Assembly (NCBI RefSeq): GCF_004570345.1
Contig: NZ_SPQM01000019.1
Location: 1 to 48,329, forward strand
Source of the DNA: Blastococcus sp. CT_GayMR20
Lineage (GTDB): Bacteria; Actinomycetota; Actinomycetes; Mycobacteriales; Geodermatophilaceae
Reading direction: 5' to 3'
Length of the DNA stretch: 48,329 bases
Shown: in pieces, positions 522-36,290 of the stretch
Layout: each line of letters opens with the position of its first letter
How positions within the stretch are numbered: position 1 is the stretch's first letter
Position numbers and translations under genes: made by a program
Notes under the pieces: generated by a model
Told to the model about the DNA's origin: nothing
The model's input: only the letters and a program-made list of their open reading frames with translations
Databases searched by the model: none

Positions 522-1496
522 ATGCGAGAACCTGACCGGGGCGGGCGCGTGGCACCGGCGCCCGTGCAGGCGGAGGTCGCGTTCTACTGCGACGGTCTGC
601 GGCTCGCGGCGACGGTGCATCGCCCAGCCGGGCCGCGGCCGGCGAGCGGGTGGCCCGCAGTGGTGGTCTGCAACGGTTTCGGGGCGAGCCGTGAACTGGT
701 CGTGCCCGAGATCGCGGACCGGATCGCCGACGCGGGCATGCTCGCACTGCGCTTCGACTATCGAGGCTTCGGGGAGAGCGAGGGGCGCCCCCACCACCTG
801 ATCCCTCAGGAGCAGGTGGCGGACGCGCGGGCTGCCGTCACGTACCTGGAGTCGCGGGACGACGTCGACCCCGGGGCGATCGGGCTGTACGGAACCAGCT
901 TCGGAGGCGGTCACGTCATCGCCCTCGCCGGCACCGATCCACGGGTGCGTGCGGTCGTGTCGGTCGTGCCGGTCGGCGACGGGAGCCGCTGGATGCGCAG
1001 CCTGCGCCGCAACTGGGAGTGGAACGCCTTCCGCCGGCGCCTCCGCGAGGACCGCATGCGCCGCATACGCACCGGGGAGTCGGAGTGGGTGGACTCCGAC
1101 GACATCATGATCCCGGACCCGCACGCCGACGCCTGGCACCAGGAGGTCATCGCGCAGTTCCCCGAGCGCAAGTACTCCCTGCCACTGGAGACCGCCGACC
1201 GGCTCCTGGAGTACTCCCCGCAGGCCGTCGTGGCGCACATCGCCCCCCGCCCCCTGCTCCTGATCCACGTCCTCGACGACGACCTGGTCCCCACCGACGA
1301 GAGCGAGCAGCTGTACGCGGCCGCGGGGGAGCCCAAGCGCCTGGTCCTGCTGCCGGGAACCCACCACCACGACATCTACGCCGGGGAGCCGTTCGAGGCG
1401 GTGATGTCGGAGGCGGTTCCCTGGCTGGCCGGCGCGCTCGGGAGCCGGAGCCACGGCACCGCCGCGGGCGCGGACATCCGCGTGGACGGTGGCTGA
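522..1496 (+). CDS. Alpha/beta hydrolase (dienelactone hydrolase-like)
   Basis: A 324-residue soluble hydrolase. The nucleophile elbow GTSFGG puts the catalytic Ser at about residue 126; the acid is probably in DDDLVP and the His in the GTHHHDIY stretch near the C-terminus. NGFG (about 51-54) and FDYRGFGES (about 78-86) are typical of the fold's oxyanion and strand regions. The start at ATG 522 follows GGAGAAG at good spacing. The next gene starts 8 bases before this stop codon, so the two are translationally coupled. It probably hydrolyses an ester, lactone or amide in the local catabolic pathway. The family is too broad to name a substrate. Confidence 0.8.
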   Translation: MREPDRGGRVAPAPVQAEVAFYCDGLRLAATVHRPAGPRPASGWPAVVVCNGFGASRELVVPEIADRIADAGMLALRFDYRGFGESEGRPHHLIPQEQVADARAAVTYLESRDDVDPGAIGLYGTSFGGGHVIALAGTDPRVRAVVSVVPVGDGSRWMRSLRRNWEWNAFRRRLREDRMRRIRTGESEWVDSDDIMIPDPHADAWHQEVIAQFPERKYSLPLETADRLLEYSPQAVVAHIAPRPLLLIHVLDDDLVPTDESEQLYAAAGEPKRLVLLPGTHHHDIYAGEPFEAVMSEAVPWLAGALGSRSHGTAAGADIRVDGG

Positions 1497-2409
1497 GCTC
1501 GAGGTCGGCGTCCTGCTGCCGCACTTCGGGGACGACGCGAGCGTCGCCAGGATCCTCGGCCACACCCCCGTCCTCGAGCGGCTCGGATACCGGTCGGCAT
1601 GGGTGCGGGACAACCTCGCGTACGCCCCGCACGCGTTCGAGCCTCCCGGTCGCCGGTTCGTCGACCCCTTCGTGACCCTCTCGGCGGTGGCGGCCGTGAC
1701 GGCGTCCCTCGGCGTGGGCACGGCGGTGACCATCCCGTTCCGTCCTCCGGCGGTCACCGCGGCACTGGTCGGGTCGCTGTGCTGGCTGGCGCCCGGCCGG
1801 GTCCAGATCGGCATGGGGTTCGGCAGCCCCCGGCCGGCCTTCGCGGCGGTCGGGATCGACTTCCCGGACCGGTACGCGCTGTGCGACCGGACCCTGGCGC
1901 TGTTGCGCGACAGCGGCGGGCCGGACGCCGAGGCCGCGGGCCCGCCGATCGACCCGGCGCCGCCTCGGGATCTGCCGCTGTGGTTCGGCGGCGCGTCCGA
2001 CCGTTCGCTGCGCAGCGCCGTCCGGTGGTGCGACGGGCTGCTGCTCGCCCGCGCCGACCTGACCACCATCACCTCCACGCGCGACAGGGCCGCGGCCATG
2101 TCCGGCGACCGTCGGCCGCCGCGCATGGGGACGGTCGCGCTCGTCCTTCCGGGGCGGTCGTACGAGGACGCGCTGCGGGACGTGGACGAGTCGCAACTGC
2201 TCGCCGAGCTGTCCCGCGTCAACAGACGCGACTACACCGCGGTGCGGGAGGCGCAGGGCGCCGTCCTCGCGGGCTCGCCGGACGACATCGCCGCCGGCCT
2301 GGATGCGCTGGCGGGGGTCGGTGTGGAGCTGGTCGTCGTCGATCTCCGGATGACGATGGGCCGCTTCGAGGAGTGGACCGCGGTCCTGGGCGAGCGCCTG
2401 CTCGCGTGA
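1489..2409 (+). CDS. LLM-class flavin-dependent oxidoreductase
   Basis: A 306-residue luciferase-like (bacterial luciferase/F420-reductase fold) protein. It shows VGVLLPHFGDD at the first strand, the VTLSAVAAVTASLGVGTAVT segment of the family, GRVQIGMGFGSPRPAF, and PLWFGGASDRSLRSAVRWCDG, the usual glycine-rich flavin-pocket region before the C-terminal helices. Such enzymes use FMNH2 or F420 to oxidise or reduce organic substrates, often with ring or C-N cleavage. The GTG start at 1489 overlaps the hydrolase stop by 8 bases. The two genes form one operon. Whether it is a monooxygenase or an F420 dehydrogenase cannot be decided here. Confidence 0.8.
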   Translation: MAELEVGVLLPHFGDDASVARILGHTPVLERLGYRSAWVRDNLAYAPHAFEPPGRRFVDPFVTLSAVAAVTASLGVGTAVTIPFRPPAVTAALVGSLCWLAPGRVQIGMGFGSPRPAFAAVGIDFPDRYALCDRTLALLRDSGGPDAEAAGPPIDPAPPRDLPLWFGGASDRSLRSAVRWCDGLLLARADLTTITSTRDRAAAMSGDRRPPRMGTVALVLPGRSYEDALRDVDESQLLAELSRVNRRDYTAVREAQGAVLAGSPDDIAAGLDALAGVGVELVVVDLRMTMGRFEEWTAVLGERLLA

Positions 2410-2473
2410 GCGGAGGCCGACGGACCGGCACCGGCGTTATGTGATCGAGACCACAAACAAGTCCGCCAACCCG

Positions 2474-2502
2474 TTGACTACTAATCGTTCAGTCACCTAC
2501 GT
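2474..2502 (+). promoter_or_regulatory. Promoter with TetR-type operator, ABC transporter operon
   Basis: TTGACT at 2474-2479, a 17-bp spacer containing CTAATCGTTCAGTCAC (2481-2496), then a weak -10 (CTACGT, or TACGTT one base further). It has the same layout as the sites at 460 and 14349 and lies about 45 bp before the binding-protein start. Confidence 0.6.
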
Positions 2503-2546: not shown

Positions 2547-3605
2547 GTGAGGACCCAGGGCATGTCACACACAGCACCAGGCCGAGGACGTCGCCGCTCG
2601 GGCCGAGCCGCACTGACGGCCGCACTCCTCGTGTTCCCCCTCCTGGCCGCGTGCGGAGGCGGCTCCGAGGAGCCCGAGGCCTCCGGTGGGGGCGGCGGCG
2701 GGGGGGACGAGCCGCTGAGCATCACCGTGGTCAACGGCATCACCTCGTTCGAGTTCATGGCCGCCGACATGGCCGAGAAGATCGGGGTCTGGGAGGACCT
2801 GAACCTCGACGTCGAGTACATCCGCGGCAGCGGCGGCGGCGGTCAGGTGACCACCACCATGACGGCGGGCCAGGCCGACCTCGGTCTCCACGGCGGCGGC
2901 GCGGCCGCGATCAGCATGGCCGAGGGCATGCCGGCGAAGATCGTCGCCGTCACCGCCCCGTCCTTCTCCGGCATGGTGTGCGTGGTCCACGAGGAGTCCG
3001 ACATCCAGTCCTTCGCGGACCTGGAGGGCAAGACGATGGGCATCTCCAGCGCCGGCTCGCTGACCGACCTGGTGTCCCGCATGATCGCCAAGAACAACGG
3101 GTGGGAGCTGGGCACCGACTTCCACCAGGCGACGATCGGCGACCTGAGCCAGCTCACCGCGGCACTGCAGGAGCGTGTCGTCGACATCATCTGCTGGTCC
3201 GCGGAGCCGGCGTTGACGCTGGTCGAGAGGGGACAGGGCCGCATCCTCGGAGACGCCGGGGAGATCGTCGGCCCCAACATCTTCGAGGCGATCGAGGCGA
3301 CCGACGAGGCGATCGAGTCGAAGCCAGAGGCGATCGAGCGCTACCTGCAGGGCTACTTCACGGCCGTGCAGTACATGAAGGACAACCCGGACGAGAGCAT
3401 CGAGTTCCTCGCCGAGTACGCCAGCGTCTCCGAGGACGTGGCCCGGCAGGTCTACGAGATGGAGATGGACAACCAGTCCCTCGACGGCACCGCGACCGAC
3501 GAGATGCTGGAGGGCCTGGTCGCCACCGCCTCAGACCTCTCGGGCAAGAGCCTCGAGGTGGAGCAGGTCTGGGACGACCAGTTCGTCCCGGTCGAGCTGC
3601 CCTGA
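2547..3605 (+). CDS. ABC transporter substrate-binding lipoprotein (NMT1/SsuA-like)
   Basis: A 352-residue exported binding protein. A basic N-terminus and hydrophobic stretch end in the lipobox LLAAC (Cys at about 36), followed by a Gly/Ser/Glu linker, so it is probably a membrane-anchored lipoprotein. The mature part follows the NMT1/THI5-like pattern: early ITVVNG, YIRGSGGGGQVTTTMTAGQA, then DLEGKTMGISSAGS and a helical C-terminus. This family binds sulfonates, nitrate, pyrimidines, riboflavin or aromatic acids. The GTG start at 2547 follows GATGGAGG with 7-base spacing. Two permeases and an ATPase follow it, making a full importer in the same operon as the molybdenum hydroxylase. Confidence 0.85.
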   Translation: MRTQGMSHTAPGRGRRRSGRAALTAALLVFPLLAACGGGSEEPEASGGGGGGGDEPLSITVVNGITSFEFMAADMAEKIGVWEDLNLDVEYIRGSGGGGQVTTTMTAGQADLGLHGGGAAAISMAEGMPAKIVAVTAPSFSGMVCVVHEESDIQSFADLEGKTMGISSAGSLTDLVSRMIAKNNGWELGTDFHQATIGDLSQLTAALQERVVDIICWSAEPALTLVERGQGRILGDAGEIVGPNIFEAIEATDEAIESKPEAIERYLQGYFTAVQYMKDNPDESIEFLAEYASVSEDVARQVYEMEMDNQSLDGTATDEMLEGLVATASDLSGKSLEVEQVWDDQFVPVELP

Positions 3606-3699
3606 CCCAGGCGCCGGACGGCGCCGGGGCATCCGGCGCCGTCCGGCGGACCGCCTCCCCGGAGCGCGGCCATCCAACTTCGAACCAGGGGGGACCCGC

Positions 3700-4545
3700 A
3701 TGGTCCAGACGGTCGACCGATCCGCAGCGGGGCCACAGTCGCCCCCGGTCGCCGCCCCCCGGCGGCGGTACTGGCCGTTGCCGGTCCCCGTGGCCCGGCT
3801 GCTGCTGATCCTCGCGTGGCTGGTCCTCTGGGAGATCACCGTCCGGCTCGAGCTGCTCAACCCCATCCTGGTCGCGACCCCGAGCGCCACCGCGGTCGAG
3901 ATGGTCGCCATCCTGGGCGATGAGGAGGTCCGGGCCGCCTTCGGCCGGACCCTGTCCGAGTACGTGGTGGGTTTCACCATCGGAGCTGTCGCCGGCATCG
4001 CACTCGGTGTGGTCCTCGGGCTGTCCCGCCCCGCCTTCCGGGTGCTGAACGCGCCGCTGATGATCGTGTACGGCACGCCGAAGAGCATCTTCCTCCCGCT
4101 GTTCGTGGTGTTCCTCGGGCTCGGGTTCGAGTCGCCGACCGCCTTCGCCGCCATGGAGACCGTCTTCCCCCTGGTCATCGCGGTCGTCGCGGGGATGCAC
4201 TCCCTGGACGCACGGCTGATGACGGCGGCGGACGCGATGGGGGCGAGCCGGCTCGACAAGGTGCGCTTCCTGATCATCCCGTCGGCCCTGCCGTCGATCA
4301 TCTCCGGCATGTGGCTCGGGCTGAAGCAGGCGCTGCTGGCCGTCCTGCTCGCCGAGCTGCTGATCTCCGGCGGTGACAACGTCGGCTTCTACATCGCCCA
4401 CTACGCGGCCGTGTTCGAGCCCGAGAAGGTGTACGCGCTCATCGGATGGCTCTCGGTCTTCGCCATCACCCTGGGCGTCATCTGGCGACGAGTCGACGCC
4501 TACGCCGGTCGTTGGCGCACGGCAGGACGAGGAGCAAGCCTGTGA
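3700..4545 (+). CDS. ABC transporter permease (SsuC/TauC family)
   Basis: A 281-residue inner-membrane permease with about six helices. The EAA-type loop that contacts the ATPase is visible as LMTAADAMGASRLDKVRFL..PSALPSIISG in the last third. A cytoplasmic N-tail of about 25 residues ends in the basic, Pro-rich segment APRRRYWPLPVP. The start at ATG 3700 follows AGGGGGGA. The stop overlaps the ATPase start by four bases (GTGA). It works with the second permease at 5404, which suggests a heterodimeric channel, as in riboflavin or thiamin-precursor (RibXY/ThiX-like) importers rather than the usual homodimeric SsuC type. Confidence 0.85.
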   Translation: MVQTVDRSAAGPQSPPVAAPRRRYWPLPVPVARLLLILAWLVLWEITVRLELLNPILVATPSATAVEMVAILGDEEVRAAFGRTLSEYVVGFTIGAVAGIALGVVLGLSRPAFRVLNAPLMIVYGTPKSIFLPLFVVFLGLGFESPTAFAAMETVFPLVIAVVAGMHSLDARLMTAADAMGASRLDKVRFLIIPSALPSIISGMWLGLKQALLAVLLAELLISGGDNVGFYIAHYAAVFEPEKVYALIGWLSVFAITLGVIWRRVDAYAGRWRTAGRGASL

Positions 4546-5423
4546 TCCAGTCGACCAATATCGAACGGAGCGATGTGCCAACACAGACGGGGGACGGCGA
4601 TCCCCGGCCGGTCATCCTCCGCGCGGAGAACGTCTCGGTGTCCTACCAGTCGGCATCGGGCTCCCGGGTCGATGCGGTCCGAGAGGTGTCGCTGGACATC
4701 CGCGAGGGCGAGTTCGTGAGCATCATCGGGCCGAGCGGGTGCGGGAAGTCCACCCTGCTCCGTGCCTTCGGCGGACTCACCCGCACCAGCGGTGGATCCG
4801 TGCTGCTCCAGGGCGACCCGGTGACCCGACCGAAGCCGGACAAGATCGGCTTCGTCTTCCAGGACTACACGCTCTTCCCCTGGCGCTCGGTCCTGGCCAA
4901 CACCGTCATGGGCCTGCAGTTCCGCGGGGTCGACCGGCGTGAGCGCGAAGCCACGGCACGCCGGTACCTGGAGCTGGTCGGCCTCGACTGGTGCGCCGAC
5001 AGCTTTCCCGCCGAACTGTCCGGTGGCATGCAGCAACGTGTTGCGATCGCACGGGCGCTGACCACCGACCCCGCGGTGCTGCTCATGGACGAACCCTTCG
5101 GCGCGCTCGACGAGCAGACCCGCACGCTGCTCGGCGGGGAGCTCGCCGGCATCGTCGAGAAGACCGGGAAGACGGTCCTGCTGGTCACCCACAGCCTGGC
5201 CGAGGCGGTGTTCCTGTCCGACCGGATCCTGGTGATGAGCGCCCGGCCCGGGTGCATCAAGGAGATCGTCCAGGTGCCGGCGGAACGGCCGAGGACCGAG
5301 GAGTTCCTCACCTCCGCCCTGTTCGACGAGATCCGCGCCAAGGTCTTCGCCTCGCTCATCGAGGAGGTCCACCGCCAGGCCCAGGCGAACGAGGAGTCAC
5401 GGCGTGCCGCGCAACGGGGATAG
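4542..5423 (+). CDS. ABC transporter ATP-binding protein
   Basis: A 293-residue nucleotide-binding subunit. Walker A is GPSGCGKST, the Q-loop is [11 protein letters not shown], the signature is [15 protein letters not shown], Walker B is [12 protein letters not shown] and the H-loop is LVTHSLAEA. All are intact, so the subunit should be active. I chose GTG 4542, which overlaps the permease stop as GTGA and follows GACGAGGAG; an upstream in-frame start inside the permease is less likely. The N-terminal stretch of about 25 residues before the first strand is longer than in SsuB. The 20-base overlap with the next permease completes a tightly coupled operon. Confidence 0.9.
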
Positions 5424-6252
5424 GCGCAGGGAGCTCCTCCTGGTCGTCAGCGGCCGGCTGGTCCTGGTGGGCGCGCTCATCTGGGGCTGGGACTGGCTGG
5501 TGCGCAGCGGCCGGGTGTCGCCGCTGCTGCTCCCGCCTCCGGACGCGGTGCTCAGGCGGCTGTGGGAGCTGCTCCAGGGCGCCGAGCTGTGGGAGAACCT
5601 CGCCATCACGGTCTTCGACGTCCTCGCGGCATTCGTCGTGTCCCTCGTCACCGGCCTCGCCGTCGGGGTGACCGTGGGCGCGAGCCGGTACTGGTCCCAG
5701 GTGGTCGAGCCGCTGATCGTCGCCGCGTACACGGTCCCGATCATCGTGATCTACCCCGTGATCACCATGCTCTTCGGGATCGACGACCTCTCCAAGATCG
5801 TGTTCGCCGGGCTGTACGGGTTCTTCCCGATCGCGGCCAACACCATCCGGGGGCTCATGGTCGTCCAGCCCGGTTTCCTGGACGCCGCCCGCGCCCTGGG
5901 CGCCCGACCGAACCAGCTGAAGTGGTCCATCATGGTGCCCGCAGCCCGTCCCCTGATCCTCTCCGGCATCCGGATCGGCCTGTCGCTGAACCTCATCGGC
6001 GTGGTGGCCGGCCAGATGCTCGCCTCACGGGACGGCATCGGTTTCCTGATCTCGACGAACGCGCAGTTGCTCAGGTCCCAGGACCTCTACGCCTACATCG
6101 CGCTGACGTTCGTCCTGGCCGGGCTGGTCAACTACGTCCTCACCCGCAACGAGCAGGCCATCCCCCGCGAACGCAGGAGCTTCCGGACGCGGAACGGCCG
6201 TCGCGGCTCCCCGCTGGCCGGCCCGACGGGGGTGGGTCAGCCCGTCCGGTAG
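5404..6252 (+). CDS. ABC transporter permease, second subunit
   Basis: A 282-residue permease with about six membrane helices and the EAA-like loop LDAARALGARPNQLKWSIMVPAA. It differs clearly from the first permease, so the pore is probably a heterodimer. The GTG start at 5404 lies 20 bases inside the ATPase gene and follows GAGGAG at 7-base spacing. The C-terminal 30 residues are basic and look unstructured. The next 220 bases carry no complete gene, only a coding-like remnant, before the molybdenum hydroxylase. Confidence 0.85.
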   Translation: MPRNGDRRRELLLVVSGRLVLVGALIWGWDWLVRSGRVSPLLLPPPDAVLRRLWELLQGAELWENLAITVFDVLAAFVVSLVTGLAVGVTVGASRYWSQVVEPLIVAAYTVPIIVIYPVITMLFGIDDLSKIVFAGLYGFFPIAANTIRGLMVVQPGFLDAARALGARPNQLKWSIMVPAARPLILSGIRIGLSLNLIGVVAGQMLASRDGIGFLISTNAQLLRSQDLYAYIALTFVLAGLVNYVLTRNEQAIPRERRSFRTRNGRRGSPLAGPTGVGQPVR

Positions 6253-6472: not shown

Positions 6473-7033
6473 GTGGACGTGAGCGAGGACGAACGGAGCG
6501 CCGGCTCCGCGGCTGATCCGGTGTGCACGGCGCAGCTGTCGACCGTGGCCAATGGGCAGCCGGTGACGGCGGACATCGCCTGCCACACGCTGCTGATCGA
6601 CTTCCTCCGGGAGGAGGTCGGGGTGCGCAGTGCGCGCCGGTCCTGCGACGTCCAGCTGTGCGGGTCGTGCTCCGTACTCGTCGACGGCCTCCCCGTGAGC
6701 TCGTGCTGCTACCTCGCCGTGGACGTCGACAAGAAGTCCGTCCTGACGGCCGAGGGACTGCGCGGTCTGGAGGATGCGGACCCGATCTACACCGCGCTCG
6801 AGAACGCGTTCGTCGAGCACGCCGCGGTGCAGTGCGGGTACTGCACACCCGGGTTCATGGTCACCCTGTGGTTCCTGATCGAGGGGGGCCATCTCACCCC
6901 CGGCACGACCCATGAAGAGCTGCGCACCCTGCTCAAGGGCAATCTCTGCCGCTGCACCGGATACGAACCCATCCTGGCGGCCGCATCCGCGGCCGTGGGA
7001 GCACTCGCGGGCGCACGGGGCGACGGCGCGTGA
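6473..7033 (+). CDS. Molybdenum hydroxylase 2Fe-2S subunit (CoxS/XdhC-type)
   Basis: A 186-residue iron-sulfur subunit of a xanthine-oxidase-family hydroxylase. The plant-type ferredoxin cluster ligands are Cys58, Cys63, Cys66 and Cys78; the second cluster uses Cys121, Cys124 (CGYCTPGF), Cys159 and Cys161 (GNLCRCTGY). It passes electrons from the Mo centre to the FAD subunit. The GTG start at 6473 follows GGAGGGA. The Mo subunit starts inside its stop codon (GTGA), then the FAD subunit, so the order is S-L-M. The N-terminus is about 15 residues longer than usual and acidic. The family normally hydroxylates N-heterocycles, purines, aldehydes or CO. Confidence 0.92.
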   Translation: MDVSEDERSAGSAADPVCTAQLSTVANGQPVTADIACHTLLIDFLREEVGVRSARRSCDVQLCGSCSVLVDGLPVSSCCYLAVDVDKKSVLTAEGLRGLEDADPIYTALENAFVEHAAVQCGYCTPGFMVTLWFLIEGGHLTPGTTHEELRTLLKGNLCRCTGYEPILAAASAAVGALAGARGDGA

Positions 7034-10265: not shown

Positions 10266-10270
10266 CCCGG

Positions 10271-10767: not shown

Positions 10768-10796
10768 TTGAATGAACGGTCATTGATCGAGCGGAC
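10768..10796 (+). promoter_or_regulatory. Operator/promoter before class II aldolase
   Basis: AATGAACGGTCATT (10771-10784) is a clean palindrome (AATGA-4-TCATT) of the regional operator type. It overlaps a TTGAAT -35-like box at 10768-10773. The -10 is poor. It lies 55-75 bp before the aldolase start. The 229-bp space after the truncated isochorismatase (10616-10844) contains nothing else I can name. Confidence 0.5.
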
Positions 10797-14273: not shown

Positions 14274-14295
14274 CGTGGGCACCTCATGGCCAGCC

Positions 14296-14376: not shown

Positions 14377-14410
14377 GAGGACTCTTTCCGGACCACGAGG
14401 GAGAGCGCAC

Positions 14411-18884: not shown

Positions 18885-18890
18885 CCTCGG

Positions 18891-23996: not shown

Positions 23997-24069
23997 TTCG
24001 CAGAACACGTCCCCCCGGAGCCCGTGGGGACGGGGTTCCGTGCGATCGCATCCAGGAGGAATCCCACGC

Positions 24070-25766: not shown

Positions 25767-25811
25767 GCCGGGCATGCAGGTCTCTGGGTCCTACGCGAAG
25801 GAGTGTGCAGC

Positions 25812-26621: not shown

Positions 26622-26692
26622 CCTCGCGCAGTCGCGGTCCCGGCGCCGTCGTCGCGGGCCCACATCCTCCCTCTTCCAGAAAGGCGTGAGAG

Positions 26693-27823: not shown

Positions 27824-27852
27824 TTGACAATGAACATTCATTCACATAGGAA
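27824..27852 (+). promoter_or_regulatory. Promoter with operator, mutase operon
   Basis: TTGACA (27824-27829), a 17-bp spacer and TAGGAA (27847-27852). AATGAACATTCATT at 27829-27842 is a near-perfect palindrome of the regional type. This is the strongest -35 of the set. About 80 bases of leader follow before the amidohydrolase start, which has AAAGGAAA upstream. Confidence 0.65.
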
Positions 27853-27930: not shown

Positions 27931-29022
27931 ATGATCATCGACGCCCACATGCACGTCCTGCTCGGCGAGCCGGGGCACGAGAACCTCCCCGAGCGGTACC
28001 GCAAGATCCTCGCCATGCTGTGGGCGTACGGGGGGAAGCCCCCGTACAACCGCGATCCCAACTCCTTCCTGGACCGCGTCGAGCCGCGGATGACCGACCG
28101 GGACGGCAAGTACACGATCGCGACCCTGGACCAGGGCGGCGTGGACGGCGCGGTGCTCATCCCGTCCGACTACGGGCTGGCGGTCGGCGAGGACCAGCCG
28201 ATGACGGTCGACGAGATCCACCAGGGGATCGCCTCGCTGCAGAGCGCGTACCCGAATCGCTTCTTCGGCTTCGCCGGCGGTGACGCCCGTCGGGTGAACG
28301 CCTATGCGGACTTCGAGCGGGCGGTGACGGAGTACGGCCTCAAGGGCTACAAGGTCATGCCGCACCTCGGGTACTACCCGTCGGACCGGATGCTCTACCC
28401 GTACTACGAGAAGTGCCAGGAGCTCGGCATCCCGGTCGCCATCTGCACCAACATGGAGTGGACGACCTGCCGGACGCGCTTCAACGAGCCGCTGCACATC
28501 GGTGACGTCCTCGTCGACTTCCCCGACCTCAACGTGATCATCTTCCACGTCGGCTTCCCCATCCCGTCGTGGTTCGAGCAGTGCCTGATGCTCTCGGTCG
28601 CGTCGATGAACGTGTATCTGCAGTTCGACGCCTGGATCTTCCCGTCGTTCACCCCGCAGCAGCAGGGCTTCCTGCACGCGATGAACAGCGAGCCGATGAT
28701 CATCAACATGCTGGACCGGGCTCGCAAGATCACCGGCGCGCACCGCATCGTCTTCGGCACCGACAACAACTGCGGCCCGTCCATGCACACCGACAAGCTC
28801 TACGACGGCCGCGGATACAAGTGGATCGTGGACTGGTGGCGGACGCTGCCCGAGCGCGCTGCCAAGTACGACGTCGAGTTCACCCAGGACGAGGTGGACC
28901 TGATGCTGGGCAAGAACATGGCCCGGCTGCTCGGGGCCATCGACATGCCCGAGTACAACCGCGCGCACAAGTTCAACACCCCGGTCCGCACGCCTGGCCC
29001 GCGTCCGATGCCCTTCGGCTGA
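27931..29022 (+). CDS. Amidohydrolase_2-family metal-dependent hydrolase/decarboxylase
   Basis: A 363-residue TIM-barrel metalloenzyme of the ACMSD/gamma-resorcylate decarboxylase group. The metal-binding HxH is His6/His8 (IIDAHMHVL); a further His lies in IIFHVGFP, and the late Asp in IVFGTDNNCG completes the site. Family members decarboxylate aromatic acids or hydrolyse cyclic amides and lactones. It is the first gene of the mutase operon, with a 43-bp gap to the mutase. Which reaction it performs cannot be fixed from sequence; ring opening or decarboxylation just before the mutase steps fits. Confidence 0.83.
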   Translation: MIIDAHMHVLLGEPGHENLPERYRKILAMLWAYGGKPPYNRDPNSFLDRVEPRMTDRDGKYTIATLDQGGVDGAVLIPSDYGLAVGEDQPMTVDEIHQGIASLQSAYPNRFFGFAGGDARRVNAYADFERAVTEYGLKGYKVMPHLGYYPSDRMLYPYYEKCQELGIPVAICTNMEWTTCRTRFNEPLHIGDVLVDFPDLNVIIFHVGFPIPSWFEQCLMLSVASMNVYLQFDAWIFPSFTPQQQGFLHAMNSEPMIINMLDRARKITGAHRIVFGTDNNCGPSMHTDKLYDGRGYKWIVDWWRTLPERAAKYDVEFTQDEVDLMLGKNMARLLGAIDMPEYNRAHKFNTPVRTPGPRPMPFG

Positions 29023-29065: not shown

Positions 29066-30831
<1,766 letters not shown>

Positions 30832-30835
<4 letters not shown>

Positions 30836-31620
30836 GCCAGGCACTCGCGGGGGTGACGTGCACGGTCGAGGAGCACGTCGCCACGCTGACGTTCACGAAC
30901 CCACGGCAGCACGGTGCCCTCACGCCCGAACTGCTGCGGGACCTCCGCCGCGAGCTGCGGGTCCTGGAGCTCAAGCGTCCACTGACCCGCGTCGTCGTCC
31001 TGCGCGGCGGAGAGGTCTTCTCCAGCGGCTATGCCCTCGACCGCTTCCCCGAACCCGACGAGCTCGCGGTCCAGGACGAGATCGAGGAGCTGTGCCAGGC
31101 GATCGAACGCTCGCCTCTGGTCGTCATCGCGCTGCTGCGGGGCGTCGCCGTAGGTGCCGGCCTCGACGTGGCGGCCTCCTGTGATTTCCGGTTCGCGGAG
31201 CGGACCTGCCGGTTGGGGATCACGCCGGCCAAGCTCGGCATCGTGTACACCGTCCAGGGCAGCTCACGGATCCATCGGCTCGTGGGCCCGGACTGGACGC
31301 GACGGCTGTTCTTCACCGGGGACCTGGTCCAGGCCGAGGAGGCCAGCCGTTTCGGGCTGGTCACCCAGGCACTCGACTCGCCGGAGGAGGCCGAGCGGGA
31401 GGCCTACGCGCTTGCGACGAGGATCGCCGCCAGGGCGCCGTTGTCGGTGGCGGGCAGCAAACGGATCATCGCGTCGATCGAGTCGTCCCGCGGCCTGCCG
31501 ATCGCGCAGGTGGCCGAGTTGCACGAGCTGCGTCGCGCCGCCCTGCGCAGCCCCGACTGCGCCGAGGCGCGTGCCGCGTTCGCCGAGAAGCGGACACCGG
31601 TCTTCACGGGGGAGGAGTGA
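30832..31620 (+). CDS. Enoyl-CoA hydratase/isomerase family protein between mutase subunits
   Basis: A 262-residue crotonase-fold protein starting at GTG 30832 with a four-base overlap of the mutase stop. Oxyanion segments: EVFSSGYALDRFP and LLRGVAVGAGLDVAASCDFRFAE; then ITPAKLGIVYTVQGSSRIHRLVG. At the catalytic Glu positions of classical hydratases it has Gly/Ala/Asp and Val/Gln instead, so a simple hydratase is doubtful; isomerase, dehalogenase-like or hydrolase chemistry is possible. Its place between the two mutase genes implies that it works on the mutase substrate or product. It is not a close copy of the protein at 13470. Confidence 0.83.
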
Positions 31621-31621: not shown

Positions 31622-32089
31622 ATGACGACATTCCGGGACAGTGACCTCGACCGGCCTGGGGAGGCGCCTGGGTCCGCGGGGAGGGTCCTCGTCGCCAAGA
31701 TCGGACTCGACGGGCACGACGTCGGCGCGAAGTACGTCGCTCGGCTGCTGCGCGACAGTGGGTTCGAGGTGGTCTACCTCGGCATCCGCCAGCGGGTGGA
31801 GGCCGTCGTCCGTGCGGCGATCGACGAGAACGTCGACATCGTCGGGCTGAGCATCCTGTCGGGCTCGCACGTCGCACTGGTGGAGCGGGTCTGCGCACTG
31901 CTGGCCGAGGAGGACGACGATCCGCCGCCCGTGGTCGTGGGTGGGGTGATCCCGCCCGAGGACCATCAGGCCCTCAAGGAACTGGGCGTCCGGGCCATCT
32001 TCAACGCGGGCACCAGCCCCGAGCAGATGGTGGACGTCATGCGCCGGCTCGTCATCGATCCCGACGCCGTGGCGGCCGGTGAGCCCTGA
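31622..32089 (+). CDS. B12-binding small subunit of the acyl-CoA mutase
   Basis: A 155-residue cobalamin-binding domain. The base-off motif is Asp30-x-His32-x-x-Gly35 in AKIGLDGHDVGAK, with Lys26 in the usual position; SILSGSH (Ser78, Leu80) and VVVGGVIP (Gly107-Gly108) complete the pocket. It is a Rossmann-type flavodoxin-like domain and would pair with the large subunit at 29066. The start at ATG 31622 lies two bases after the hydratase stop, with GGGGGAGGAG upstream. Split large and small genes are usual for isobutyryl- and hydroxyisobutyryl-CoA mutases, while an intervening hydratase gene is unusual. Confidence 0.93.
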   Translation: MTTFRDSDLDRPGEAPGSAGRVLVAKIGLDGHDVGAKYVARLLRDSGFEVVYLGIRQRVEAVVRAAIDENVDIVGLSILSGSHVALVERVCALLAEEDDDPPPVVVGGVIPPEDHQALKELGVRAIFNAGTSPEQMVDVMRRLVIDPDAVAAGEP

Positions 32090-32182: not shown

Positions 32183-33679
32183 ATGCCCAGCAGGACCCTC
32201 ATCCGTGGTGGCCAGGTGTACGAGCACGGCGGGGACATCCACCGGCCTCGTACCGCCGACGTGCTGGTCGAGGGCAGCACGATCGTCGATGTCGGCCCTG
32301 ACCTGAGGGCGGAGGACGCGGCGGTGATCGAGGCCTCCGGCAAGCTCCTCGTCCCCGGCCTGGTCAATGCGCACTACCACTCGCACGACACGCTCTGCCG
32401 CGGCATGTTCGAGGAGCAGACGCTCGAGACCTGGTTGCTGTACACGCTGCCCATGGGCGCCGGGCGGAGCAAGGAGGAGATCCGGGCCCGCACCCTCGTC
32501 GGGGCCCTGGAATGCCTCCGGTCGGGCATCACCACGGTGCAGGACATGCTGGGGCTGGTCCCGCTGACGGAGGACAACGTCGACGTCGTCCTCTCGGCGT
32601 ATCGGGAGGCCGGCATCCGGAGCGTCTTCTCGCCCATGGTGTGGGACATCCCCCCGGTGGCCATGGTCCGGCACCGGGACACCCTGCCCGACGACGTGCA
32701 GGAGATGCTCGGAACGCGGGCGCTCGGTGCCGAGGAGCAGTTGGACTTCCTCCAGGCACAGCTGGACCGGCACCCGGCCGTCGGCGCGCAGCACTGGGCG
32801 CTCGCGCCCTTCGCGCCGCAGCGGTGCACGCCGGAGCTGCTGCGGGGCTGCGCGAAGCTCTCAGCGGAGCACAACCTGCCCGTGTTCACGCACGTCTACG
32901 AGACGCGCGGCCAGGTGCTGATCGCGCGGGAGCTGTTCGGGGAGCACGGCGGTTCCCTGATCAACTTCCTGGAGGACGTCGGGTTGCTCACCCCGCTGCT
33001 GAACATCGTGCACAGCGTGTGGATCTCCCGCGGGGAGATGGACCAGATGGCCGCTGCGGACGCCGGGATCGTGCTGAACTTCCTGAGCAACCTCAAGCTG
33101 AAGAGCGGTATCGCGCCGGTGCTGGACCTGCGGGAGTCGGGGGTCCGCCTGGCTCTGGGGTGCGACAACTGCAGCGGGACCGACGTGCAGAACCTCTTTC
33201 AGGCGATGAAGCTGTTCTGCCTCTTCGCCGCGGTGAGCGACCCCGAGCCGGGGCCGCCCCTCGCGCACGAGGCGCTCCGCCACGCGACGCTGGGTGGCGC
33301 GCGTGCGGTGGGCCTGGGGGACCGGATCGGCGCGATCGAGTCCGGGCGGGAGGCCGATCTCGTCTTCATCGATCTGGACGACATCGCCTACCTGCCGTAC
33401 AACAGCGCCGCCCGTCAGCTGGTCTACACGGAGACCGGCCGGGGCGTGGAGAGCGTCATGGTCGCCGGCCGCATGGTGGTCGACCGGGGCACGGTCACCA
33501 CCGTGGACGAGCAGGCCCTGCGCGAGGAGGTGGCCGGTCTCATGCGCCACTTCGTGGACGACTACGACGCCGTGGTGCGCTCGCGCGAGCGCGCACTGCC
33601 CTACATGGCCGAGGCCCAGCGCCGCGTCTGGAGCCAGGACATCGGGATGCACCGCTTCCTCCAGCGGACCCGGGCCTGA
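32183..33679 (+). CDS. Amidohydrolase (chlorohydrolase/deaminase-like)
   Basis: A 498-residue metal-dependent hydrolase of the TrzN/AtzA, guanine-deaminase branch. Metal ligands: His64 and His66 in VNAHYHSHD, a His in FTHVYE, another in NIVHSVW, and Asp in LALGCDNCSGTD. The C-terminal segment IGAIESGREADLVFIDLD is the usual return to the small beta-domain. Enzymes of this branch deaminate or hydrolyse C-N and C-Cl bonds of heterocycles, so it may open an N-containing ring or remove ammonia. I chose ATG 32183 with GTGAGG just upstream; GTG 32171 is the alternative. It is the last gene of the operon before a hairpin. Confidence 0.85.
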   Translation: MPSRTLIRGGQVYEHGGDIHRPRTADVLVEGSTIVDVGPDLRAEDAAVIEASGKLLVPGLVNAHYHSHDTLCRGMFEEQTLETWLLYTLPMGAGRSKEEIRARTLVGALECLRSGITTVQDMLGLVPLTEDNVDVVLSAYREAGIRSVFSPMVWDIPPVAMVRHRDTLPDDVQEMLGTRALGAEEQLDFLQAQLDRHPAVGAQHWALAPFAPQRCTPELLRGCAKLSAEHNLPVFTHVYETRGQVLIARELFGEHGGSLINFLEDVGLLTPLLNIVHSVWISRGEMDQMAAADAGIVLNFLSNLKLKSGIAPVLDLRESGVRLALGCDNCSGTDVQNLFQAMKLFCLFAAVSDPEPGPPLAHEALRHATLGGARAVGLGDRIGAIESGREADLVFIDLDDIAYLPYNSAARQLVYTETGRGVESVMVAGRMVVDRGTVTTVDEQALREEVAGLMRHFVDDYDAVVRSRERALPYMAEAQRRVWSQDIGMHRFLQRTRA

Positions 33680-33686: not shown

Positions 33687-33719
33687 CGACCCGAGCGTCC
33701 TCAGAGGACGCTCGGGTCG
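33687..33719. terminator. Hairpin terminator between convergent genes
   Basis: A perfect 16-base inverted repeat with a one-base centre (CGACCCGAGCGTCCTC at 33687-33702 and its complement at 33704-33719). It lacks a T-run, as is common in actinobacteria. It overlaps the stop of the acyl-CoA dehydrogenase gene and would end both convergent transcripts. Confidence 0.7.
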
Positions 33720-35503
33720 AGGTCGACGGTCGTCCTGTCCAGGGTCTCCAGCAGCCGCAGCCGGGTGCGTGCGTCGGGCAGCTCGTAGCGGCAGAAGTAC
33801 CGCGCCGCAGCGCGCTTCGCGGCGGCGAAGCCGTCCTCCCGCTCACCCAGGGCCAGCAGCTGGTCGAGCCAGGCCCAACCCACCACCAGGTGCCCGACGG
33901 CCTCGAGGTAGAGCGAGGAGTTCGCCAGCCGCACCTGCGCGTCCGGCTCGTCCAGCAGCACAGAGGTGACGTCGACGAGCTGGCCGAGGGTGTCGCCGAC
34001 GGCACCGGCCAGCTCCTGGAGGTGCGGAGCCCCGCCGCGGGCACGGGACAGCGTGGCCTCGATGAGCTCGCACAGTGCGGTGAACGCGGCACCGTTGTGC
34101 ATCGACACCTTGCGGCCCAGGAGGTCGAGGCCCTGGATGCCGTGCGTGCCCTCGTGGATCGGGTTGAGCCTGTTGTCCCGGTAGTGCTGTTCCACGTCGT
34201 ACTCGCGGGTGTAGCCGTACCCGCCGTGGACCTGGATGGCCAGGTCGTTGGCGGCCAGGCACCACTGCGAGGGCCAGCTCTTGGCGATCGGCGTGAGGAT
34301 CTCCAGGAGCAGCGAGGCCCGGTGACGCGACTCGGCCGTTTCGCCGGTCAGCTGCTCGTCGACCAGCCTGCTGCAGAACAGCACCACCGCGAGCGCGCCC
34401 TCGACGTAGCTCTTCTGCGCCAGCAGCATGCGGCGCACGTCCGGGTGCTGGTCCAGGGCGACCGGAGGCTGTGAAGGGTCCTTGGCTCCGAGCGGGCGGC
34501 CCTGTGTGCGGGTGCGCGCGTAGTCGACGGACTTGAGGTAGCCGGTGTAGCCCAGTGCGGCAGCGCCGGCCCCGATCGCGATCCGGGCCTCGTTCATCAT
34601 GTGGAACATCGCGGCCAGGCCCTGGCCTTCTGCGCCCACCATGGTGCCGACGGCGCCGGTGCGGCCGCCGGGCGTGTGCCGCCCCTCGCCGAAGTTGAGC
34701 ACGGTGTTCGTGGTTCCGCGGTATCCCATCTTGTGGTTGAGGCCGGCCAGGACGACGTCGTTGCGCTCGCCGATCGAGCCGTCGTCGGAGAGGAGGAACT
34801 TGGGAACCAGGAAGAGGGAGATCCCTCTGACACCTGGTGGTGCATCGGGTGTACGGGCCAGCACGAGGTGGACGATGTTCTCGCCGAGATCGTGGTCACC
34901 CCCCGAGATCCACATCTTGGTGCCCGTGAGCCGGTAGCTCCCGTCCTCCTGCTTCACGGCGCGCGTGGTGATGTCGGCCAGCGACGAGCCGGCCTGGGGT
35001 TCGGACAGGCACATCGTCCCGTGGAAGCGGCCCTCGAGCATCGGCCGGACCCAGGTGTCCACCTGCTGGGTGGACCCGTGCGCCATGAGCAGGTTCGCGT
35101 TCGCCACGGTGAGCAGCGCGTAGGACCAGGTGCCGATGTTCGCGGCCTGGAACCAGGCAGCCGCCGCTGTCGCCACGACATGGGGGAGCTGCATGCCGCC
35201 GAGTTCGACGTCGGCGCTCGAGCCGATCAGCCCCGTGCCGGCCAGGACGTCGAGGGCCACCCGGACCTCCGGGTGCATGTGGACGGTCTCGCCGTCGAAG
35301 GTGGGCTCCTCGGCGTCGTTGCGCCTGTTGTGGGGGGCGAAGTGTCTGGTGGCCACCTCCTCGGCGAGCTGCAGGACAGCGTCGAAGGTGCCCCTGTCGT
35401 GGTCCACGTAGCGGTCGCGGGAGGTCAGCGACGTGACGCCGAGCCAGTCGTGCAGCAGGAACGCGAGGTCGTTCCGGGACATCAAGCGGCTCATCGGGGG
35501 CAT
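33701..35503 (-). CDS. Acyl-CoA dehydrogenase (DmdC/C-terminal-extended type)
   Basis: A 600-residue FAD enzyme: an N-terminal helical region, the flavin segment MCLSEPQAGSSLADITT and WISGGDHD, then a long C-terminal domain. The Glu in LNPIHEGTHGIQG is the probable catalytic base. The extra C-terminal domain (about 130 residues) matches the large ACAD group that includes DmdC-like enzymes, which handle substituted acyl-CoA esters. The start ATG 35503 has TGGAGC upstream; an ATG at 35494 is close. It follows the SDR by 49 bases on the same strand, so both belong to one operon. Confidence 0.87.
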   Translation of the reverse strand: MPPMSRLMSRNDLAFLLHDWLGVTSLTSRDRYVDHDRGTFDAVLQLAEEVATRHFAPHNRRNDAEEPTFDGETVHMHPEVRVALDVLAGTGLIGSSADVELGGMQLPHVVATAAAAWFQAANIGTWSYALLTVANANLLMAHGSTQQVDTWVRPMLEGRFHGTMCLSEPQAGSSLADITTRAVKQEDGSYRLTGTKMWISGGDHDLGENIVHLVLARTPDAPPGVRGISLFLVPKFLLSDDGSIGERNDVVLAGLNHKMGYRGTTNTVLNFGEGRHTPGGRTGAVGTMVGAEGQGLAAMFHMMNEARIAIGAGAAALGYTGYLKSVDYARTRTQGRPLGAKDPSQPPVALDQHPDVRRMLLAQKSYVEGALAVVLFCSRLVDEQLTGETAESRHRASLLLEILTPIAKSWPSQWCLAANDLAIQVHGGYGYTREYDVEQHYRDNRLNPIHEGTHGIQGLDLLGRKVSMHNGAAFTALCELIEATLSRARGGAPHLQELAGAVGDTLGQLVDVTSVLLDEPDAQVRLANSSLYLEAVGHLVVGWAWLDQLLALGEREDGFAAAKRAAARYFCRYELPDARTRLRLLETLDRTTVDLDPSVL

Positions 35504-35552
35504 GCGAGCTCCAGGGGCGTGGGCGGCTACCTGCGGGTGGCCTTGCGATCGG

Positions 35553-36290
35553 CTAGATGGAGATGCCGCCGTCGACCGGGAGCACGACCCCGGTGATGTA
35601 GGCGGCCTCGTCCGAGGCCAGGAAGCAGACGGCACCGGCCATCTCCGCGGGGTCCGCGAAGCGGCCCAACGGGATGCCGCCTGCCATCTCGGCCCGGCGC
35701 TCTTCCGGGATGGACGCGATCATGCGGGTGTCGGCATTGGGTGAGATCGCGTTGACGGTGACGCCGAAGCGGGCCAGCTCCTTGGCGGCCGTCTTCGTGA
35801 AGCCGATGATCCCGGCCTTCGCCGCGGCGTAGTTGGCCTGGCCCGGGTTCCCGCGGAGACCGGTGTAGGACGTCACGTTGATGACCCGCCCCCCACCCTG
35901 GCCCCGGAAGTGCGGGGTCGCAGCACGCGTGAAGCGGTAGGTGCCTCCGACGTGCACCGCGAGGACGGCGTCCCAGTCGGCGTCGGTCAGCTTCCACGAG
36001 ACGCCGTCCCGCAGGATGCCGGCGTTGTTGACCAGGACGTCCAGGCGACCGGTGTCCTCGATGACCCGCGCGACGACGGCCTCGACCGCGTCGGTGTCGG
36101 TGACGTCCGCCGGGAGGCCGATGGCCCCCACGTCGGCGGCCGCCGCGTCCAGTTCGGCCGCGTCGGCGTCGATCATGAACACGGCGGCGCCGGACCGCTG
36201 GAAGGCCTCGGCCAGGGCACGGCCGACGCCACGCGCTGCGCCGGTGACGACGACCGAGCGCCCGGTGAAGTCGAAGGAACAGGTGGGCAC
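35553..36290 (-). CDS. SDR-family oxidoreductase (FabG-like)
   Basis: A 245-residue classical SDR. TGAARGVG cofactor motif, NNAG, Ser in VINVTSYTGL, YAAAK with Tyr and Lys, and a C-terminal YITGVVLPVDGG. It resembles 3-hydroxyacyl-CoA dehydrogenases and ketoreductases. The GTG start at 36290 has GGAGG six bases before it. It is the first gene of the operon with the acyl-CoA dehydrogenase and together they look like the oxidation steps of a CoA pathway. An operator-like palindrome lies 74 bases upstream. Confidence 0.87.
   Translation of the reverse strand: MPTCSFDFTGRSVVVTGAARGVGRALAEAFQRSGAAVFMIDADAAELDAAAADVGAIGLPADVTDTDAVEAVVARVIEDTGRLDVLVNNAGILRDGVSWKLTDADWDAVLAVHVGGTYRFTRAATPHFRGQGGGRVINVTSYTGLRGNPGQANYAAAKAGIIGFTKTAAKELARFGVTVNAISPNADTRMIASIPEERRAEMAGGIPLGRFADPAEMAGAVCFLASDEAAYITGVVLPVDGGISI

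What the first reader, a model, noticed from the sequence alone, without database searches (positions are those of the whole stretch)
522..36290. Possible undescribed N-heterocycle/aromatic-acid pathway that ends in a B12-dependent acyl-CoA rearrangement
The region holds, under apparent common control, two importers, a Mo hydroxylase, a DHOD-like reductase, two amidohydrolases, a CoA ligase, MeaB, a split acyl-CoA mutase, two crotonase-fold proteins, an acyl-CoA dehydrogenase and three SDRs. Mo hydroxylation and amidohydrolysis act on N-heterocycles in known families (nicotinate dehydrogenase, enamidase), and B12 mutases act on acyl-CoA. Anaerobic nicotinate breakdown in Eubacterium barkeri joins Mo-hydroxylase, ring reduction, enamidase and a B12 mutase, but without CoA chemistry. 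The same logic with a CoA-linked mutase is, to my knowledge, not described for aerobic actinobacteria. The substrate is inferred only by family.
Basis: partly seen in the sequence, partly recalled or inferred. Interest (0 to 1): 0.8.

Follow-up and report, generated by a model that had tools for sequence, protein, structure and literature searches.

The report
Co-regulated island with unusual B12 mutase
An actinobacterium carries a 36 kb set of apparently co-regulated genes that most likely breaks down a nitrogen-containing or aromatic acid and includes a vitamin B12 enzyme from an uncharacterised branch of its family; a similar chemical logic is known from bacterial breakdown of the plant hormone auxin.

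Summary
The gene inventory at 522-36290 is real, and "common control" now has sequence support: eight operator-like sites (17-26 bits leave-one-out; best elsewhere in the window 8-9) lie before the island's operons, none in the housekeeping part. Synteny with the nearest held genome begins at 36446, just past the island. Relatives of the Mo hydroxylase and of the mutase seem to share contigs (four equal contig lengths). The mutase lacks the methylmalonyl-, isobutyryl- and 2-hydroxyisobutyryl-CoA mutase fingerprints: it keeps Tyr89/Arg207 but loses Phe287 and the HCQT loop, and forms its own clade with Dehalococcoidia proteins. Its operon partner is a crotonase whose best NCBIfam match, below cut-off, is methylmalonyl-CoA decarboxylase. 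One "binding protein" is a 4,5-dihydroxyphthalate-decarboxylase relative. Best reading: a bulky substituted succinyl-CoA is rearranged to a malonyl-CoA, decarboxylated and beta-oxidised. The logic is not undescribed: auxin (iaa) degradation uses a ligase and such a mutase (PMC8360864). This looks like a non-orthologous variant; the substrate is unknown.

The parts
464..481 (.). operator-like site before abh-llm (CTTATGACCGTTCAGTTA)
522..1496 (+). alpha/beta hydrolase
   Evidence: Pfam PF02129/PF12146
1489..2409 (+). luciferase-like (F420/FMN-type) oxidoreductase
   Evidence: PF00296; TIGR03619 below cut-off
2478..2495 (.). operator-like site before importer 1 (and, if read through, the Mo hydroxylase)
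2547..6252 (+). ABC importer 1: NMT1/SsuA-type binding protein, permease, ATPase, permease
6473..10265 (+). Mo hydroxylase: FeS (6473-7033), Mo (7030-9351) and FAD (9351-10265) subunits
10262..10615 (+). isochorismatase-like fragment: only profile positions 115-169 of 175, Cys motif kept
   Evidence: no other half among the nearby ORFs scanned
10769..10786 (.). operator-like site before the aldolase gene (seed site)
10845..11570 (+). class II aldolase family; best NCBIfam 3,4-dihydroxyphthalate decarboxylase (71.8 bits, cut-off 200)
12121..13323 (-). dihydroorotate-dehydrogenase-like flavoprotein
13470..14324 (-). crotonase / enoyl-CoA hydratase (ech1)
14353..14370 (.). operator-like site in the divergent ech1 / sdrE promoter region
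14375..15517 (+). extended SDR / epimerase-like protein
15453..17213 (+). AMP-forming acyl-CoA ligase (true start probably later)
17204..18205 (+). MeaB, mutase-associated GTPase (above NCBIfam cut-off)
18198..19031 (-). TetR regulator (TetR_C_24), proposed reader of the operators
19078..20274 (-). MFS transporter
20318..20335 (.). operator-like site in the divergent mfs1-tetR / decarboxylase promoter region
20724..21731 (+). 4,5-dihydroxyphthalate-decarboxylase family enzyme (looks like a binding protein)
   Evidence: PDB 9jp7, 142.7 bits, E 1.5e-40
21772..22656 (+). SDR
22664..23935 (-). MFS transporter
23973..23990 (.). operator-like site between mfs2 and importer 2 (overlaps the first bases of the listed permease ORF, whose true start may be later)
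23980..27742 (+). ABC importer 2: permease, permease, ATPase, NMT1 binding protein
27827..27844 (.). operator-like site before amh2-mutL-ech2-mutS-amh1 (seed site)
27931..29022 (+). Amidohydro_2 enzyme (decarboxylase/hydrolase superfamily)
29066..30835 (+). B12-dependent acyl-CoA mutase, large subunit, of a separate clade
30832..31620 (+). crotonase between the mutase genes, methylmalonyl-CoA-decarboxylase-like (GTG start overlapping the mutL stop)
31622..32089 (+). mutase small, B12-binding subunit
32183..33679 (+). Amidohydro_1 enzyme, ATZ/TRZ - MTA/SAH deaminase group
33701..35635 (-). acyl-CoA dehydrogenase of the long (FadE5-like) type with HEG motif
35553..36290 (-). SDR, FabG / acetoacetyl-CoA-reductase-like
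36360..36377 (.). operator-like site before sdr3-acd (between sdr3 and polA)

Best explanation
A probably acquired catabolic island under one TetR-type repressor. An N-heteroaromatic or related aromatic carboxylic acid is imported, hydroxylated next to the ring nitrogen by the Mo hydroxylase, decarboxylated (DHP-decarboxylase-like, aldolase-type or Amidohydro_2 enzyme) and/or reduced (DHOD-like protein), and the ring is opened hydrolytically (Amidohydro_1 enzyme). The product, a succinic acid with a bulky substituent, is made a CoA ester by the ligase, and the MeaB-assisted B12 mutase moves the thioester carbonyl to give a substituted malonyl-CoA. The crotonase between the mutase genes removes the extra carboxyl group, and acyl-CoA dehydrogenase, hydratase (ech1) and SDR carry on with beta-oxidation. 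Shown by sequence: gene classes, gene order, shared operator-like sites, the separate mutase clade with altered pocket columns, a crotonase without the hydratase glutamates. Inferred: binding by the TetR protein, order of steps, mutase direction, the decarboxylase role and the substrate.
For: Eight sites, leave-one-out 17.4-25.8 bits against 7.6-9.1 for the best other place in the window; none >=20 bits and one >=14 in 599,116 bases of other high-GC loci. Pattern search 4 hits, two of them the seeds, against 0.15 expected. The 6 of 6 operon-leading regions that were not seeds score p 0.002-0.05; 0 of 5 housekeeping regions score below 0.1. Mutase keeps the Y89, Q197, R207 and H244 columns, as carboxylated acyl-CoAs require in MCM (recalled); all 120 listed relatives keep R207, 117 have N and 3 V at F287, 0 keep H328 with Q330. 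Clade support 100. Five iaa-type mutases from clusters with hydantoinase genes also have N at F287 and lack the H/Q pair. A crotonase lies between the two mutase genes in Dehalococcoidia loci L101 and L107 too. ech2: best of 67 NCBIfam families is methylmalonyl-CoA decarboxylase; the two Glu columns of hydratases read D and P. Mo hydroxylase and mutase share four contig lengths. An amh1 relative (67%) lies within 16 kb of Mo-hydroxylase and two DHP-decarboxylase-like genes in a rhizobial genome. PDB matches of moL: 4-hydroxybenzoyl-CoA reductase, 6-hydroxypseudooxynicotine dehydrogenase, CO dehydrogenase, quinoline 2-oxidoreductase.
Against: No island protein scanned passes an NCBIfam cut-off of a heterocycle-degrading family. 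amh1 does not follow the mutase: 2 of 120 listed hits share a contig length with the 120 listed mutase hits, one (2,686 bp) probably by chance, and Blastococcus brunescens has an 89% copy while its contig length is not in the mutase list. With the two-seed matrix alone, two coding positions (26699, 18870) outrank four of the six further sites. No site before moS (p 0.55), so the Mo genes must be read from the importer promoter. ech2 is below the decarboxylase cut-off (161.8 of 257 bits), and ordinary hydratases rank above the decarboxylase in PDB searches. No thiolase was seen in the island. The mutase clade was found in 0 of 112, 0 of 394 and 0 of 397 actinomycete genomes (in the last two only 3 first-look candidates per genome were scored, and the tool warns that an empty answer without a positive control shows nothing). 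AU tests do not reject grouping the clade with iaa-type mutases or with MCMs (p 0.187 each).
Confidence: 0.5

Rival explanations
1. Aromatic di-acid (phthalate- or lignin-like) catabolism without a nitrogen ring: the Mo hydroxylase hydroxylates or dehydroxylates an aromatic acid or oxidises an aldehyde, two or three phthalate/resorcylate-type decarboxylases trim it, and the B12 branch treats a side-chain succinate.
For: DHP-decarboxylase relative, aldolase nearest to 3,4-DHP decarboxylase though far below cut-off, Amidohydro_2 model nearest to LigY, LigW and LigJ folds (model pLDDT only 65.6), ligase nearest to 8weu/8wev, named fatty-acyl-CoA synthase and feruloyl-CoA synthetase, moL nearest to 4-hydroxybenzoyl-CoA reductase.
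Against: Amidohydro_1 of the deaminase group in the mutase operon; an isochorismatase (amidase-type) fragment behind the Mo genes; no ring-hydroxylating or ring-cleaving dioxygenase matched among the ORFs scanned.
Confidence: 0.25
2. An aerobic indoleacetate (auxin) pathway with replaced parts: oxindoleacetate opened by an amidohydrolase to 2-aminophenylsuccinate, then CoA ligase, mutase, decarboxylase and beta-oxidation to 2-aminobenzoyl-CoA.
For: Every step has a candidate; iaa-type mutases share the F287N change and the loss of the H/Q pair; iaa-like clusters in MAGs of other lineages; chemistry described in PMC8360864.
Against: No hydantoinase A/B and no family III CoA-transferase among the ORFs scanned; mutase in another branch; acyl-CoA dehydrogenase has HEG, not the GGG of IaaF, and is of the long FadE5-like type; DHP-decarboxylase and DHOD-like genes have no evident role in it.
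Confidence: 0.12
3. Several neighbouring unrelated catabolic operons, with a B12 module that is an ordinary methylmalonyl-CoA salvage system.
For: Mixed strands and several operons; amh1 separable from the mutase.
Against: Shared operator-like sites; Mo hydroxylase and mutase relatives on contigs of equal length; mutase fingerprint unlike all 61 sequences of the MCM type.
Confidence: 0.1

Closest known systems
Indoleacetate (iaa) degradation of Aromatoleum aromaticum
   Same: binding protein, CoA ligase, split B12 mutase giving a substituted malonyl-CoA, acyl-CoA dehydrogenase (PMC8360864, parts read); Mo hydroxylase and amide ring opening (recalled; Mo and hydantoinase genes seen in iaa-like clusters)
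   Different: no hydantoinase A/B, no CoA-transferase, no GGG-type dehydrogenase among the ORFs scanned; a separate crotonase probably decarboxylates; mutase of another branch; extra decarboxylases and DHOD-like protein
Methylmalonyl-CoA mutase / methylmalonyl-CoA decarboxylase pair (Sbm-YgfG type; recalled)
   Same: mutase with the Tyr89/Arg207 columns next to a decarboxylase-like crotonase
   Different: Phe287 and HCQT loop lost, separate subunits, own clade
2-hydroxyisobutyrate branch of the ibc genes of Mycolicibacterium (PMC13188929, passages)
   Same: aerobic actinobacterial gene cluster with CoA ligase, two-subunit cobalamin mutase, auxiliary protein and dehydrogenase
   Different: HcmA columns (Ile90, Asp117, Gln at Arg207) absent here
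Anaerobic nicotinate fermentation of Eubacterium barkeri (recalled)
   Same: Mo hydroxylase, reductase, amidohydrolase and B12 mutase in kind
   Different: its mutase acts on a free acid; here a CoA-type mutase with ligase and MeaB
Picolinate (pic) pathway
   Same: picolinate dehydrogenase PicA (Mo type recalled), decarboxylase PicC annotated as an amidohydrolase, deformylase, maleamate amidohydrolase (PMC10142695, passages)
   Different: no ring dioxygenase found among the ORFs scanned; isochorismatase-type gene truncated; mutase branch added

Membership tests
iaa (indoleacetate) pathway | hydantoinase A/B ring-opening enzyme (recalled as defining) | tested here: not met
   no PF01968/PF02538 match among the ORFs scanned
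iaa (indoleacetate) pathway | IaaL CoA-transferase | tested here: not met
   no PF02515 match among the ORFs scanned
iaa (indoleacetate) pathway | IaaF with GGG in place of YEG | tested here: not met
   window dehydrogenase reads IHEGTHGIQ; motif from PMC8360864
iaa (indoleacetate) pathway | mutase of the IaaG clade | tested here: inconclusive
   own clade, support 100, but AU test does not reject union with iaa-type mutases, p 0.187; no authentic IaaG sequence was available
Methylmalonyl-CoA mutase | Tyr89, Arg207, Gln197, His244 columns | tested here: met
Methylmalonyl-CoA mutase | Phe287 and HCQT loop | tested here: not met
   N and GAHM in the window; 61 sequences have the Y-R-F-F-H-Q fingerprint, 0 of the 120 listed relatives keep the H/Q pair
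2-hydroxyisobutyryl-CoA mutase | Ile90, Asp117, Gln at the Arg207 column | tested here: not met
   window has Y, A, R, (role of the residues recalled)
Isobutyryl-CoA mutase | Phe and Gln at the Tyr89 and Arg207 columns (recalled) | tested here: not met
   window has Y and R; 16 sequences have the F-Q form
Methylmalonyl-CoA decarboxylase (ech2) | score above the NCBIfam cut-off of 257 bits | tested here: not met
   161.8 bits, best of 67 families
4,5-dihydroxyphthalate decarboxylase (20724-21731) | full-length sequence relation to the solved enzyme | tested here: met
   9jp7, residues 4-333, E 1.5e-40
4,5-dihydroxyphthalate decarboxylase (20724-21731) | decarboxylase activity on that substrate | not testable with these tools
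   needs an assay
MeaB | score above NCBIfam TIGR00750 cut-off | tested here: met
   331.5 against 240.75 bits

The most novel reading that the evidence does not exclude
The mutase clade, seen in actinobacterial and other metagenome contigs and in Dehalococcoidia genomes, is a new specificity: a B12 mutase for bulky (aryl, alicyclic or heterocycle-derived) succinyl-CoA esters, coupled to a dedicated malonyl-CoA decarboxylase of the crotonase fold, in an otherwise undescribed oxygen-tolerant pathway for an N-heteroaromatic acid.
Probability: 0.42. Interest if true: 0.75.

Novelty: new variant of a known kind. Interest (0 to 1): 0.56.

Why it matters
If right, the carbon-skeleton rearrangement known from anaerobic auxin and alkane breakdown also runs in an actinobacterium with different partner enzymes. 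It would give a first function to a mutase clade present in up to four copies in a 1.4 Mb Dehalococcoidia-class genome; a paper on SAR202 genomes, which I take to be related (recalled), proposes oxidation of recalcitrant dissolved matter (PMC5395668, listing and passages seen). The shared operator makes it directly testable: the compound that releases the TetR repressor points to the substrate.

Tried and rejected
Rejected: MCM, ICM and HCM identity of the mutase; direct membership in the iaa pathway (no hydantoinase or CoA-transferase among the ORFs scanned, no GGG dehydrogenase); reading 20724-21731 as a binding protein. A DHOD hit near a Dehalococcoidia mutase (L099) looked like a partner, but it is a full DHO_dh-domain protein (257 bits) among unrelated genes and was dropped. 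A claim of convergence between the window clade and iaa-type mutases was dropped after the AU test.

Led nowhere: co-occurrence counts in actinomycete genomes (0 of 394, 0 of 112, 0 of 397); amh1 in the window's own family (0 of 112 at E<=1e-150); plasmid searches with mutL, amh1, dhod and amh2 (no match at the limits set) and sdrE (two matches under 40% identity); polA in plasmids; mutL in the family of G546 (2 of 248 at E<=1e-108); Rfam (four tRNAs at gathering threshold); paper searches for this gene set (0 papers; 2,079 papers with two of four terms, 10 listed, none relevant). The amh2 model has pLDDT 65.6, so its fold matches say superfamily only. I thought of one chimeric query to test several proteins in the last protein search and did not do it.
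Full report
What is there. ORF listing, codon-position composition and Pfam/NCBIfam scans give 32 genes from 522 to 36290. All gene classes of the finding are present. The mutase operon reads amh2 (27931), mutL (29066), ech2 (30832, a GTG start overlapping the mutL stop), mutS (31622), amh1 (32183). The ligase and MeaB genes overlap (15453-17213, 17204-18205), which ties CoA activation to the mutase. The gene at 20724 was weakly similar to binding proteins, but its only PDB match at E<=1 is 4,5-dihydroxyphthalate decarboxylase, over residues 4-333 at E 1.5e-40. The aldolase-type gene at 10845 has 3,4-dihydroxyphthalate decarboxylase as its best, sub-threshold NCBIfam match. The ORF at 10262 matches only the last third of the isochorismatase profile; no other half was found in the nearby ORFs scanned.

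One regulon. A palindrome scan of 15 intergenic stretches listed many inverted repeats; I took two AT-rich ones as seeds, before the aldolase gene (10769) and before the mutase operon (27827). The pattern TGAATGANNNNTCATTCA (suggested by recalled FadR operators) with up to three mismatches has 4 hits in the window against 0.15 expected; two are the seeds, and all four are intergenic and in the island. A matrix from the two seeds alone was then tried on 18 regions. All six further operon-leading regions scored above their own shuffles (p 0.007, 0.039, 0.050, 0.002, 0.023, 0.002). Of seven other island gaps, the one before moS (0.55), four intra-operon or convergent gaps (0.20-0.96) and the tetR-mfs1 gap (0.14) did not; the mutS-amh1 gap did (7.7 bits, p 0.010) but was not counted as a site. 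None of five housekeeping regions did (0.11-1.0). Over the whole window the seed matrix ranks two coding positions (26699, 18870) above four of the six further sites. With all eight sites, leave-one-out scores are 17.4-25.8 bits and the best other place in the window scores 7.6-9.1; in 599,116 bases of the other loci with GC of at least 62% there is no hit of 20 bits and one of 14. Three sites lie between divergent island genes and one between sdr3 and polA, so eight sites can serve every operon as I delimited them, from abh to sdr3-acd. The TetR gene (18198-19031) is the obvious reader; it lies directly behind mfs1 on the same strand, downstream of one of the sites. That it binds there is inferred.

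An island. The window's genome is not held. The nearest of 394 sampled genomes of the class is G395 (polA N-terminus 93% identical). Nucleotide similarity to G395 starts at 36446, 29 bp before the polA start, and runs in pieces to 46647; blastn found no match between the island and the 39 kb upstream of polA in G395, and tblastn only ABC-ATPase matches of 27-34%. The mutase clade was found in 0 of 112 genomes of that family (E<=1e-140), 0 of 397 of the order and 0 of 394 of the class sample (E<=1e-150); in the last two only three first-look candidates per genome were scored, and no positive control was among them. The island therefore looks acquired (inference). The closest amh1 in a named genome is 89% identical, in Blastococcus brunescens, which points weakly to Geodermatophilaceae.

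The mutase. It matches HcmA (344.3 bits) and human MCM (343.6 bits) about equally; an AlphaFold2 model (pLDDT 82.1) has the mutase fold, nearest 4r3u and 2xiq. Among 231 distinct mutases aligned, 61 carry the MCM fingerprint Y89-R207-F286-F287-H328-Q330 and 16 the F-Q variant. Of the 120 listed database relatives, 120 keep R207 and 119 Y89 (one is a fragment), 117 have N and 3 V at F287, and 0 keep H328 with Q330. Of 20 Dehalococcoidia-type rows, 20 keep Y89 and 19 R207 (one H), with L (13), N (4), Q (2) or H (1) at F287. Keeping Arg207 means a free carboxylate on the substrate (recalled for MCM). Loss of Phe287 and of the HCQT loop suggests a wider pocket (inference). In a 77-row tree (32 of 74 inner branches at 95 or more) the window clade plus Dehalococcoidia relatives is one branch with support 100, apart from MCM, HcmA, F-Q-type and iaa-type mutases. 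AU tests do not reject joining it to the iaa-type or to the MCM rows (p 0.187 each), so its sister group is open.

Relatives. Of 120 listed database hits (8,000 scored), the first 34 are 62-92% identical and the rest 56-60%, apart from one 75% fragment. Fourteen of 148 genomes of the class of a Dehalococcoidia MAG have a hit at E<=1e-180, one with four copies. In two loci a crotonase lies between the mutase genes, as mutL-ech-mutS in L101 and mutS-ech-mutL in L107. L108 has mutS-mutL in a beta-oxidation-like cluster with family III CoA-transferase, acyl-CoA dehydrogenase, thiolase, MmgE/PrpD, SDRs, crotonases and an Amidohydro_2 gene; L109 is alike by its matches to window genes. No match to the window's Mo-hydroxylase genes was found in L099-L113. 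A Desulfobacterales locus (L003) also has an Amidohydro_2 gene next to mutS.

Linkage of Mo hydroxylase and mutase. Metagenome contigs could not be opened, but the tables give contig lengths. Four lengths (10,560, 19,153, 62,535 and 70,572 bp) occur in both lists, at ranks 9, 2, 5 and 6 of the 120 moL hits and 16, 6, 11 and 18 of the 120 mutL hits, and no other length does (two moL rows have no length; one length missed was checked). The 19,153-bp pair is named Propionibacteriales bacterium in both tables. For amh1 two lengths coincide with the mutase list, 6,396 (ranks 2 and 3) and 2,686 (ranks 71 and 114, probably chance), and none with the moL list. So Mo hydroxylase and mutase look like a core, while amh1 looks optional; since only the best 120 hits are listed, more distant amh1 copies on those contigs are not excluded. 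In a genome of the family of Bradyrhizobium cajani an amh1 relative (67%) lies within 16 kb of a three-subunit Mo hydroxylase (large subunit 29% to the window's) and two DHP-decarboxylase-like genes (29% and 31%); 1 of 110 genomes there had amh1 at E<=1e-200.

The crotonase ech2. Its best of 67 NCBIfam families is methylmalonyl-CoA decarboxylase (161.8 bits; cut-off 257). Aligned with hydratases, the two Glu columns (catalytic: recalled) read D and P. Five mutL-associated crotonases from Dehalococcoidia-type loci have P (3) or A (2) at the second column. PDB ranking puts hydratase-named entries first and the decarboxylase fifth and sixth or seventeenth and eighteenth with the family profile. 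A decarboxylase role is the better reading, not a proof.

Known systems. PMC8360864 (parts 1, 2 and 4 of 6 read) describes the iaa pathway: binding protein IaaM, ligase IaaB, CoA-transferase IaaL, mutase IaaGH producing (2-aminobenzyl)malonyl-CoA, and the decarboxylating dehydrogenase IaaF with GGG for YEG. Its Mo hydroxylase and hydantoinase-like step I recall from Ebenau-Jehle 2012. A cluster with mutS, mutL, hydantoinase A and B, a ligase and a Mo-hydroxylase FAD gene was found in a Desulfobacterales MAG (L116; domain search, sequences read by eye). Related clusters were found by similarity to L116 and the window in MAGs labelled Flavobacteriales (L024), Acidimicrobiaceae (L025) and Planctomycetota (L022, hydantoinase B only), all with Mo-hydroxylase genes, and in a Rokubacteria contig (L121 and L060 are the same contig) without one in the stretch read. 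Three of these mutases are 53-57% identical to that of L116; all five are about 40% identical to the window's. Hence the finding's chemical logic is not new as such. New here, as far as I could see, are the mutase clade's use, the probable crotonase decarboxylase, the different hydrolases and decarboxylases, and the single regulon. PMC13188929 (passages) shows an aerobic actinobacterial cluster with a different CoA-type mutase. PMC10142695 (passages) shows that an amidohydrolase-family protein can be a hydroxypicolinate decarboxylase, a model for amh2. PMC5395668 (passages) mentions methylmalonyl-CoA mutase in SAR202 once, for propionyl-CoA use. PMC11599936 (passages) gave nothing on pocket residues of this kind. 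Searches for this gene set in print returned nothing; the held library lacks most subscription journals.

Verdict. A real, apparently co-regulated, probably acquired catabolic island with a mutase of uncharacterised specificity. The substrate is open: an N-heteroaromatic acid is the best guess, an aromatic di-acid the main rival.

Noticed in passing
L024 1547-20377, L025 1-10308, L022 6563-15193, L121 / L060 (same contig): iaa-like clusters (hydantoinase genes with split mutase; Mo-hydroxylase genes in the first three) in MAGs labelled Flavobacteriales, Acidimicrobiaceae, Planctomycetota and Rokubacteria; an auxin-type pathway may reach beyond anaerobes.
   Followed up: partly
L099-L110, L112 (G425, G443, G422, G485, G432, G506, G435, G001): Dehalococcoidia-class genomes carry up to four copies of the window-type mutase, plus other mutases (six mutase matches in the 1.3 Mb genome G001).
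   Followed up: partly
window 10262-10615: Short ORF overlapping the Mo-hydroxylase FAD gene keeps only the Cys-bearing C-terminal part of an isochorismatase-type amidase: a remnant or a miniature protein.
   Followed up: partly
L131 137-12404 and L130 8238-9260: Rhizobial cluster with an amh1 relative, a three-subunit Mo hydroxylase, ABC-importer-like genes and two DHP-decarboxylase-like genes; no mutase matched in the stretch read.
   Followed up: partly
window 43483-43790 and 46522-46593: Four tRNA genes flank a stretch with an SsgA-like gene (43887-44348 -) and a sigma-70-type gene (44308-45156).
   Followed up: no
window 47323-48324: Multicopper oxidase gene that reaches the window edge.
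   Followed up: no
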